A stretch of DNA of 45,027 nt from Armatimonadota bacterium (GTDB taxonomy: Bacteria; Armatimonadota; UBA5829; JAUSEB01). The notes under the pieces are model-generated. The model was not told where the DNA came from, made no database searches, and saw only the letters and a list, made by a program, of their open reading frames with translations. The stretch lies in contig JAUSGG010000050.1 of the NCBI GenBank assembly GCA_030649165.1, positions 1 to 45,027 of the forward strand, read 5' to 3'. Shown here one piece after another: positions 1 to 39,778 of the stretch. A program made the translations under genes and the position numbers. Numbering within the stretch: the stretch's first letter is position 1; each line of letters starts with the position of its first letter.

Positions 1-174
1 ATGAAACGCCGGATGCGTTGCGGGAACTACAGGTAGCGATGCCAAAACCTCAGCTAGAAAAGGCCGTTCCCGCAGGATAGGCCATGCGTTTCATTTTGGA
101 GATAACCACGCCCGCGTGGTCGGTTGCTCGAAATGACATTCAGCGGCGCTTACTCCCTATTCCTGAACTGTTAC
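1..174. mobile_element. Right part of a MITE-like element (left end outside the window)
   Basis: The stretch is non-coding. It ends with CTGAACTGTTAC at 163-174, the same terminal motif that bounds the elements at 22477-22627 and 39480-39670. It contains a hairpin block at 101-137 that recurs at 16111-16147 inside another element, and nested inverted repeats (ATGAAACGC at 1-9 with GCGTTTCAT at 86-94; GCGGGAAC at 20-27 with GTTCCCGC at 66-73). No left terminus or target duplication is visible, so membership in the family is inferred from one end and shared interior sequence. Confidence 0.45.
20..80. repeat. 61-bp REP-like palindromic repeat, copy 1
   Basis: It begins GCGGGAACT and ends GGCCGTTCCCGCAGGATAG, so the ends form an 8-bp inverted repeat. 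A second copy with the same ends and similar length lies at 39327-39388. The centre differs between copies, so the hairpin arms are what is conserved. Confidence 0.45.
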
Positions 175-15716: not shown

Positions 15717-15801
15717 ACCCGGCTGCCCTCTTGCCTGGCGCTGCCCGCAAACGGGTCCGGACGGAATCACACCGCCCCGTCGCCACACGCCATCCCACGG
15801 G

Positions 15802-16172
15802 AGTCAGTTCAGTTTCGCGGGAATGTCATTCCGACCGTATGCCAAAAGAAGCTCCGGAGGACGTCATTCCGAGGAGGAACGACGAGGAATCTGCTTTTTC
15901 CGGAACTTACCACAGCAAAAGCAGATTTCTCGACTCCGCTGGCGCTCCGCTCCTAAGAAAGCACTCGGATTTGGACCGCGGGAACTTCTTGCCGCTTTGA
16001 CCGGCTTGGGCAGTCCCGCGACCGCTGTCCCGGCGATTGAGCCGGTTAGAATGGGTGGCGACAAAGCGGCGATGAATCGCCGCAGTCCACATAGGCCGCT
16101 TTCTTTCCGAAATAACCCCGCCCGCGGGGTCGGTTGCTCGAAATGACGATGCCCAGAAGACTGAACTGTTGC
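15802..16172. mobile_element. MITE-like element with palindromic interior
   Basis: The right end CTGAACTGTTGC (16161-16172) and a degraded left end AGTCAGTTCAG (15802-15812) are inverted. The flanking octamers CCCACGGG (15794-15801) and CCCACCGG (16173-16180) differ at one base, fitting an 8-bp target duplication. Inside, GTCATTCCGAG near 15863 is mirrored by CTCGAAATGAC (16137-16147), and GAATCTGCTTTT is mirrored by AAAAGCAGATTT, so most of the element can fold on itself. It encodes nothing convincing and appears to have cut the prepilin remnant at 16182. The remainder of the 15661-16486 gap holds that remnant, an operator/promoter and a leader. Confidence 0.5.
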
Positions 16173-22476: not shown

Positions 22477-22627
22477 GAAACAGTTCAATCTTGCGGGAAC
22501 GCTATCCAGGTAATGGAGCATGCGCCACCTACCCCCTCTCCCCCTGGGCGGGAGAGGGTTGGGGTGAGGGGGGCGGATCTATTATCGTGGACGATTTCAT
22601 AGACTTCCCGTAACACTGAACTCTTAC
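22477..22627. mobile_element. 151-bp MITE-like element in the leader of the DUF362 gene
   Basis: Left end GAAACAGTTCAA (22477-22488) and right end CTGAACTCTTAC (22616-22627) are imperfect inverted repeats of the family seen at 39480-39670. The flanking octamers GGTTTGGC (22469-22476) and GGTTTGCC (22628-22635) differ at one base, fitting a target duplication. The interior carries a CCCTCTCC/GGGAGAGGG hairpin around 22531-22560. It encodes nothing and lies between the promoter and the start codon at 22652. Confidence 0.6.
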
Positions 22628-39233: not shown

Positions 39234-39388
39234 TGAACGCGGAGAAGCGCGGACGGGGGGAAACCGCGGATGAACGCGGAGAAGCGCGGATGGAGGGAAG
39301 GAGTCGAGGGAGTCGTGGCGCCTCCCGCGGGAACTGACTTCGACGATATTCGATGGCTGGGTTGCACAAGGCCGTTCCCGCGGGATAG
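39234..39388. repeat. 20-bp direct repeat (39234, 39271) and REP-like palindrome (39327-39388)
   Basis: TGAACGCGGAGAAGCGCGGA occurs at 39234-39253 and again at 39271-39290. The block 39327-39388 starts GCGGGAACT and ends GGCCGTTCCCGCGGGATAG and is the second copy of the palindromic element at 20-80. GAGTCGAGG and GGAGTCGGA nonamers flank it (39301-39315, 39391-39425). The gap 39206-39778 contains no gene that I can support. Confidence 0.5.
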
Positions 39389-39479
39389 AAGGAGTCGGAG
39401 GAGTCGGACGAATCGGACGGGTCCGACAAGCGTCAACTGACAACCCTCAACATTCAACTCTCAACCCCCGCCCCATGAC

Positions 39480-39670
39480 GTAACAGTTCAGAAATGGGCA
39501 GTATTTCATCAGCGTGACAATTGAGGAATGCAGAGAGCTTTCACCCTCACCCCATTCGCTGCGCTCAGGGCAGGCTCTAACCCTCTCCCTCAAGGGAGAG
39601 GGGATTACGCTCGTGCTTTCCCGAAAGTGAGCAGCGAAGAGAGTTGTACTCACCAAGCCTGAACTCTTAC
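39480..39670. mobile_element. 191-bp MITE-like element with 8-bp target duplication
   Basis: GTAACAGTTCAG (39480-39491) and CTGAACTCTTAC (39659-39670) are 12-bp inverted repeats with one mismatch. CCCATGAC flanks both sides exactly (39472-39479 and 39671-39678). The interior contains a CCCTCTCCC/GGGAGAGGGG hairpin and no gene. This is the clearest copy of the family. Confidence 0.7.
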
Positions 39671-39778
39671 CCCATGACTGATGAGCTGTAATCTTGGGAA
39701 TATACATGCTAAACTGGCAATAGATCACTTGGAGCAAGACTCCCTCGCATAACCGATAGGAAGACTAAGGTAGGAGTA

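What the first reader, a model, noticed from the sequence alone, without database searches (positions are those of the whole stretch)
39480..39670. A MITE-like family with TIR near GTAACAGTTCAG and 8-bp target duplications
The copy at 39480-39670 has 12-bp TIRs with one mismatch and an exact CCCATGAC duplication. 22477-22627 has related ends and GGTTTGGC/GGTTTGCC. 15802-16172 has related ends and CCCACGGG/CCCACCGG. A right end lies at 163-174. Interiors differ (GGGAGAGGG hairpins in two, GTCATTCCGAG palindromes in another), so the ends mobilise different palindromic cargo. No transposase is in the window.
Basis: seen in the sequence. Interest (0 to 1): 0.62.

Follow-up and report, generated by a model that had tools for sequence, protein, structure and literature searches.

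The report
IS66-driven miniature transposons carrying borrowed palindromes
Tiny transposons without genes, apparently moved by a transposase made elsewhere in the same genome, carry two kinds of DNA palindrome that occur widely in bacteria and had no known means of moving.

Summary
The finding is real. The genome (an unnamed Armatimonadota-lineage MAG) has 385 near-matches to GTAACAGTTCAG, against 23 for the reversed pattern. In 1.27 Mb of stretches I found 59 inward-facing pairs: 37 have an exact 8-bp duplication, 10 have one mismatch, and no other flank length recurs. The missing transposase exists on other contigs: a 1,531-bp, single-ORF IS66-family element with the same 12-bp ends and its own 8-bp duplication. 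The miniature elements share only the terminal 23 bp or less with it, so their interiors are not IS66 leftovers.

The interiors belong to two known repeat classes: the 'intrastrand triplex motif' (GGGAGAGGG hairpin) and CGTC-tagged palindromes. Of 65 elements with near-intact duplications in two genera, 63 hold one of these by motif and the other two hold damaged ones. The triplex motif also sits inside unrelated ends: a 10-bp-duplication family and TA-flanked elements in the same genome, and IS630-like ends in two distant genera. The papers describing these repeats reported no link to transposons. How the interiors are captured is inferred, not shown.

The parts
39472..39479 (.). left 8-bp target duplication CCCATGAC
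39480..39670 (+). type I IS66-end miniature element, 191 bp, carrying a triplex-motif hairpin
39480..39491 (+). left terminal inverted repeat GTAACAGTTCAG
39544..39602 (-). triplex motif with an expanded second loop: CCCTCTCCC-TTGA-GGGAGAGGG-loop-GGGTGAGGG on the minus strand
   Evidence: consensus from PMC4666352
39659..39670 (-). right terminal inverted repeat GTAAGAGTTCAG
39671..39678 (.). right 8-bp target duplication CCCATGAC
22477..22627 (+). 151-bp element; left end of the type II kind (GAAACAGTTCAATCTTGCGGGAA), flanks GGTTTGGC/GGTTTGCC
22534..22570 (+). triplex motif CCCTCTCCC-CCTGGGC-GGGAGAGGG-TTG-GGGTGAGGG (first loop 7 nt)
   Evidence: read from sequence
15801..16172 (+). type II element with CGTC-type palindrome plus a nested module; flanks CCCACGGG/CCCACCGG
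163..174 (-). right end of a type I element with the CGTC-type palindrome, cut by the contig start
38191..38225 (-). triplex motif without IS66 ends nearby ('naked' copy)
39323..39388 (-). copy of a CCCGCGGGAAC...GTTCCCGCGGGA repeat, uninterrupted; paralogous empty site for an IS66-end insertion in contig C8 (L194:7846-7978)

Best explanation
The copies are MITEs: gene-less miniature transposons whose ends are recognised in trans by a single-ORF IS66-family DDE transposase encoded elsewhere in the same genome, which makes 8-bp target duplications on insertion. They are not shrunken copies of that IS. Their interiors are pre-existing palindromic repeats of two classes, the intrastrand triplex motif and CGTC-tagged palindromes, held between IS66-type ends and spread with them. 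Shown: end pairs, 8-bp duplications, a partner IS with the same ends, one insertion with paralogous empty sites, interchangeable interiors in two genera, and the triplex motif inside other transposon ends. Inferred: transposition in trans by this enzyme, and the route by which the palindromes came to lie between the ends (insertion into an older MITE, or capture when two ends came to flank a palindrome).
For: Ends: 385 vs 23 control. Duplications: 37 of 59 pairs exact at 8 bp, 10 more with one mismatch; exact repeats of lengths 4-7 and 9-12 appear once among the 59. Sister genus G001: 12 of 20 exact, 3 more with one mismatch. Shuffled ends: 0 pairs for 6 patterns. Partner: PF03050 139.4 bits over 30-290 of 330 aa, NF033517 220.3 bits with cut-off 180; element spans contigs C106 and C60, which share 141 bp; 1,531 bp; flanks GCACCGGC/GCACCGGC. 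Interiors: no IS66-MITE alignment longer than 13 nt away from the ends; longest end match 23 bp. Cargo: G000 25 triplex, 21 CGTC-type, 2 damaged or nested triplex of 48; G001 9 triplex-variant, 8 CGTC-type of 17 (the two damaged ones judged by eye). Set B, not picked for hits: triplex motif about 43-fold (strict) to 68-fold (expanded loop) denser inside elements than outside. Of 101 genomes searched, 7 match the extended end; only G000 (202 matches) and G001 (36) have more than one, and G001 has its own IS66. Empty sites.
Against: 11 of 59 pairs in G000 and 3 of 20 in G001 lack a near-duplicate flank (more than 2 mismatches). The only complete IS66 is read across two contigs with a 141-bp overlap, so it is an assembly inference. 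Most triplex motifs lie outside elements that pass the end-and-duplication test: strict 8 inside and 36 outside in set A, 3 and 21 in set B. No conspecific genome was held, so there is no orthologous empty site. The CGTC class of G000 departs from the published CGTC families in loop length.
Confidence: 0.86

Rival explanations
1. The palindromes are the mobile part (REP-like units moved by Y1/RAYT transposases), and the IS66 ends are an old frame into which they inserted.
For: Triplex units occur 'naked', with conservation fading a few bases outside the motif (36 of 78 copies). A module M sits inside the CGTC palindrome, in the beta arm in five elements found by regex and in the other arm in two by eye. 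Y1 genes exist in both genomes, and a weak one in G001 is flanked on both sides by hairpins like M's inner hairpin.
Against: None of the six Y1 loci is flanked by triplex or CGTC-type palindromes. Intact 8-bp duplications lie at the IS66-type ends, so whole units moved. Empty frames with the same ends and no palindrome were not seen among 65 elements.
Confidence: 0.3
2. The palindromes have no shared origin: MITEs need a strong hairpin inside, and G-rich hairpins arise again and again.
For: All interiors are palindromic; G001 uses variant triplex-like hairpins different from those of G000.
Against: The motif includes a third, unpaired GGGTGAGGG strand that a hairpin does not need; strict matches 262 vs 0 reversed. 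A 36-nt copy is identical to copies in E. coli chromosomes (best hits 36 of 36; matches in 4,374 of 5,426 genomes).
Confidence: 0.15
3. Chance or a non-mobile repeat: ends and duplications are coincidental in a repeat-rich genome.
For: The genome is rich in short repeats.
Against: Control patterns give no pairs and the duplication length is sharply 8; an IS with the same ends exists.
Confidence: 0.01

Closest known systems
IS66 family insertion sequences
   Same: DDE_Tnp_IS66 transposase, ends starting GTAA, 8-bp duplications (family description read in passages of PMC11946415)
   Different: Ends read GTAACAG rather than GTAAGCG; one ORF, without the accessory genes of classical IS66 (that classical members carry them and that single-ORF members exist, the ISBst12 group, is recalled)
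Bacterial MITEs (e.g. NEMIS, RUP, ERIC, Nezha; names as listed in PMC3733652)
   Same: Short, gene-less, inverted ends, target duplications, high copy number, partner IS in the genome
   Different: Interiors are not remnants of the partner IS; the same ends enclose several unrelated palindromes
Intrastrand triplex motif TM_ECO (Holder et al. 2015, PMC4666352; outline and passages read)
   Same: Consensus CCCTCNCCC-N3-6-GGGNGAGGG-N3-GGGNGAGGG is met by 11 of 48 G000 elements in the form I scanned (first loop 3-7); 14 more have a longer second loop
   Different: That paper found no association with transposons or mobility genes; here it lies inside end-and-duplication units
CGTC-tagged REPs (Di Nocera et al. 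2013, PMC3733652; abstract, two sections and passages read)
   Same: CGTC tag, A-T pairs opening the stem, dimers; the CTGAACTTG type in G001 has an 8-bp stem and 5-nt loop
   Different: The GTCATTYCGAG type has a longer loop; the paper found no transposase for CGTC REPs
REP dimers inside longer palindromes (A. variabilis GTAG-15, H. neapolitanus CGTC-1; same paper, section 7)
   Same: A palindrome nested in a conserved palindromic frame
   Different: There no end recognition or target duplication was described in the section read

Membership tests
IS66 family (the partner element) | IS66 transposase domain | tested here: met
   PF03050 139.4 bits; NF033517 220.3 bits, cut-off 180
IS66 family (the partner element) | Terminal repeats beginning GTAA, 20-30 bp | tested here: inconclusive
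   Perfect 12 bp starting GTAA, similarity continuing to about 17 bp; next bases CAG, not GCG
IS66 family (the partner element) | 8-bp target duplication | tested here: met
   GCACCGGC on both sides
IS66 family (the partner element) | Accessory tnpA and tnpB genes (classical subgroup; recalled) | tested here: not met
   One long ORF fills the 1,531-bp element; this excludes only the classical subgroup
MITE | Inverted ends and target duplication | tested here: met
   47 of 59 pairs with 0-1 mismatch in the 8-bp flanks
MITE | Autonomous partner with the same ends | tested here: met
MITE | Interior derived from the partner by deletion | tested here: not met
   No internal alignment over 13 nt; I treat this as an optional feature (recalled), since not all MITEs show it
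MITE | Movement in trans by the partner enzyme | not testable with these tools
   needs an assay
Intrastrand triplex motif | Published consensus | tested here: inconclusive
   Met with first loop 3-7 by 11 of 48 G000 elements; the copy at 39480 has a longer second loop and 22477 a 7-nt first loop
Intrastrand triplex motif | Folds into a triplex | not testable with these tools
   needs CD or NMR
CGTC-tagged REP | CGTC/TGTC tag and A-T opening pairs | tested here: met
   CGTCATTCC..GGAAT, CGTCATGCTGAA..TTCAGCAT (read)
CGTC-tagged REP | Stem 8-9 bp, loop 4-5 nt | tested here: inconclusive
   Met by the CTGAACTTG type in G001, not met by the GTCATTYCGAG type of both genomes

The most novel reading that the evidence does not exclude
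Triplex motifs and CGTC palindromes are vehicle-independent cargo: they pass between miniature transposons of unrelated transposases (IS66, IS630-like, a 10-bp-duplication family), and this is a main way in which palindrome families with no transposase of their own spread within and between bacterial lineages.
Probability: 0.35. Interest if true: 0.8.

Novelty: new variant of a known kind. Interest (0 to 1): 0.62.

Why it matters
[quoted passage not shown] Here both lie inside transposon ends with target duplications, and the triplex motif does so in several unrelated end types. That turns an open question into one that can be tested at the bench and by genome surveys.

Tried and rejected
Y1/RAYT transposases as the movers of the cargo: six Y1 loci in G000 and G001 have other hairpins at their flanks, or none, but not the triplex or GTCATTYCGAG palindromes.

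A single cross-phylum test of the GTCATTTCGAG palindrome in genome contigs: all 28 hits were one Armatimonadota MAG (E14_maxbin.151), so that exact form looks lineage-bound; plasmids gave none. The CTGAACTTG form had one plasmid hit, Treponema, 38 nt at 89.5%.

Partner for the TA-flanked family 3 in G000: none of five DDE_3 loci had its ends or those of family 2. No partner was sought for family 2 by a dedicated search.

Triplex motifs in G076 and G045 showed no shared inverted ends in the sampled loci (inverted doublets or single copies). The seven strict triplex loci sampled in G001 also looked naked. These count against the idea that cargo is their only state.

Papers: no paper linking IS66 MITEs with these palindromes was found in searches (open-access holdings only; listings seen, and passages of the papers named in the report).

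Full report
WHAT WAS CHECKED. The window is contig C151 of a 5.48-Mb, 266-contig genome. The sister genus G001 corresponds to Armatimonadota MAG E14_maxbin.151: the contig lengths agree with those, for example 15,773, 12,567, 20,578, 4,854 and 28,375. The copy at 39480-39670 is as described: 12-bp ends with one mismatch and an exact CCCATGAC on both sides. The other two copies and the solo right end are also present. The 12-mer occurs 385 times at up to one mismatch against 23 for its reversed control.

DUPLICATIONS. Set A is 43 sequences (731 kb), partly picked because they held ends. Set B is 40 stretches (542 kb), the first 20 kb of contigs taken by number and not already used, so contigs chosen earlier for hits are missing from it. 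I paired inward-facing ends (one end at most 1 mismatch, both together at most 3, 40-700 bp apart) and, where several partners were possible, kept the one with the better flank match. Set A gave 49 pairs (29 exact, 9 with one mismatch, 1 with two, 10 worse). Set B gave 10 (8 exact, 1 with one mismatch, 1 with seven). G001, 20 stretches picked for ends, gave 20 (12 exact, 3 with one, 2 with two, 3 worse). Exact flank repeats of any length other than 8 in the range 4-12 occurred once in A, never in B and once in G001. Six shuffled end patterns gave no pairs in A+B (all). Agreement along the flanks is 92-100% over the eight positions and falls to 40% or less just outside on the left.

EMPTY SITES. 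Joined flanks of 65 insertions were compared with the held sequence; 40 alignments span a junction, many of them low-complexity. The clear case is the 133-bp element in contig C8 (L194:7846-7978). It sits in a CCCGCGGGAAC...GTTCCCGCGGGA repeat of which about 25 other copies, one in the window at 39323-39388, continue across the site without it.

THE TRANSPOSASE. PF03050 finds one strong locus at the end of contig C106. The end GTAACAGTTCAG lies 20 bp past the stop codon. The amino-terminal part lies on C60, and the two contigs share 141 bp. The joined element is 1,531 bp, with perfect 12-bp ends, flanks GCACCGGC/GCACCGGC and one long ORF. The protein scores 220.3 bits to NCBIfam IS66 and 139.4 to Pfam IS66. 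GTAA ends and 8-bp duplications are described for IS66 in passages of PMC11946415. G001 carries its own 470-aa IS66 protein. Its ends (GTATGAGTTCAGTTCTCCGG...) resemble a second miniature end type, AGTTCAGTYYTnCGGGAA, of which I found 7 pairs in G000 and 1 in G001, 7 of the 8 with flanks differing by at most one base when a one-base shift of the end is allowed. Two of these eight are also counted among the first type. The window copy at 15801 is one of them; the copy at 22477 shares its left end.

INTERIORS. The miniature elements share only their last 23 bp or fewer with the IS. Among 48 G000 elements with flanks within two mismatches, a motif scan puts 25 in the triplex class (11 with the published spacing apart from a first loop of up to 7, 14 with a longer second loop) and 21 in the CGTC class. 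Of the other two, one is a triplex element with another element nested in it and one is a decayed triplex element by eye. Of 17 in G001, 9 hold triplex-like variants and 8 CGTC-type palindromes (sequences). The CGTC label rests on loose motifs. The published triplex consensus was read in PMC4666352. The same paper reports no association with transposons and no transposase remnants. For CGTC REPs, PMC3733652 reports no linked transposase and suggests that a broad spectrum of transposases might move them.

SAME CARGO, OTHER VEHICLES. Strict triplex matches number 262 in G000, against 0 reversed, and 23 of 101 genomes have at least one. In sets A+B, 78 copies (strict or expanded loop) divide into 24 in intact elements, 18 near an IS66-like end and 36 without; the family 2 label of that script is tested last and caught none. 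Family 2 (ends CAAYACRGTTCACTTAA) gave 9 pairs, 8 with exact 10-bp duplications, 7 carrying the motif. A TA-flanked family 3 gave 7 pairs at a loose threshold, 3 with the motif; one is nested in an IS66-end element at a TA. In G058, a distant genus, 15 of 20 sampled copies lie between TATACTCGTTACGG ends, 3 have the right end only and 2 neither. One of 19 DDE_3 loci there, L302:993-2169, has such ends (1 and 2 mismatches) around a two-ORF IS630-like transposase (the IS630 name for this architecture is recalled). In G087, 9 of 11 loci have related but diverged ends, counted by eye. G076 and G045 show no shared ends. A 36-nt copy from G000 matches E. coli chromosomes at 36 of 36 in the best hits, with matches in 4,374 of 5,426 genomes.

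MECHANISM. Best reading: an IS66 enzyme acts on the miniature ends in trans, makes 8-bp duplications, and carries whatever lies between. Matching ends, duplications and the empty-site case are shown; activity in trans and the capture step are inferred. That every interior is a palindrome may mean that a strong fold is needed or favoured, or that palindromes are what gets caught; the data do not decide.

NOVELTY. IS66-linked MITEs are a new member of a known kind. Interchangeable palindromic interiors of two transposase-less repeat families, with one of them riding in several unrelated end types, make it a new variant. No prior report was found in the searches listed under Tried and rejected, which cover open-access papers only.

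Noticed in passing
L080:2924-3024, L083:17951-18051, L104:16875-16975 and others: A second miniature family with ends CAAYACRGTTCACTTAA and exact 10-bp duplications of the form nnnCTARCCC in most copies, mostly carrying the triplex motif; partner unknown.
   Followed up: partly
window 39323-39388 and about 25 copies in other stretches: A roughly 66-bp repeat with CCCGCGGGAAC / GTTCCCGCGGGA arms and a variable centre, scattered over the genome.
   Followed up: no
L085:12084, L088:5379, L102:12, L075:1672; window 15801-16172: A module of about 145-190 bp (CAACCGACCCCGC...CTTAGGAG) sits after YCGAG in either arm of the CGTC-type palindrome, and its own inner hairpin differs between copies: palindromes nested three deep.
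   Followed up: partly
L155 (G001 C114): A weak Y1-type transposase match (22.4 bits, below cut-off) flanked on both sides by GTTTCGGGATTT...AAATCCCGAAAC hairpins like the inner hairpin of that module.
   Followed up: partly
L157 (G000 C180) and L153 (G001 C324): Y1-type transposases flanked by CTTCGGTAGC...GCTGCCGAAG hairpins, which look like REPs of the classical kind.
   Followed up: no
window 39300-39420; L091 near 6200: Low-complexity (GAGTCGGAG)n / (GATCGGACG)n tracts and CAACC-rich tracts lie beside many of the repeats.
   Followed up: no
window 1-174: The contig starts inside a CGTC-type miniature element, so some assembly breaks fall in this family.
   Followed up: no
L089:12002-12305: Two elements of different cargo inserted 9 bp apart with overlapping target duplications GTTGACCG and TTGACCGT, suggesting a reused target.
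   Followed up: no
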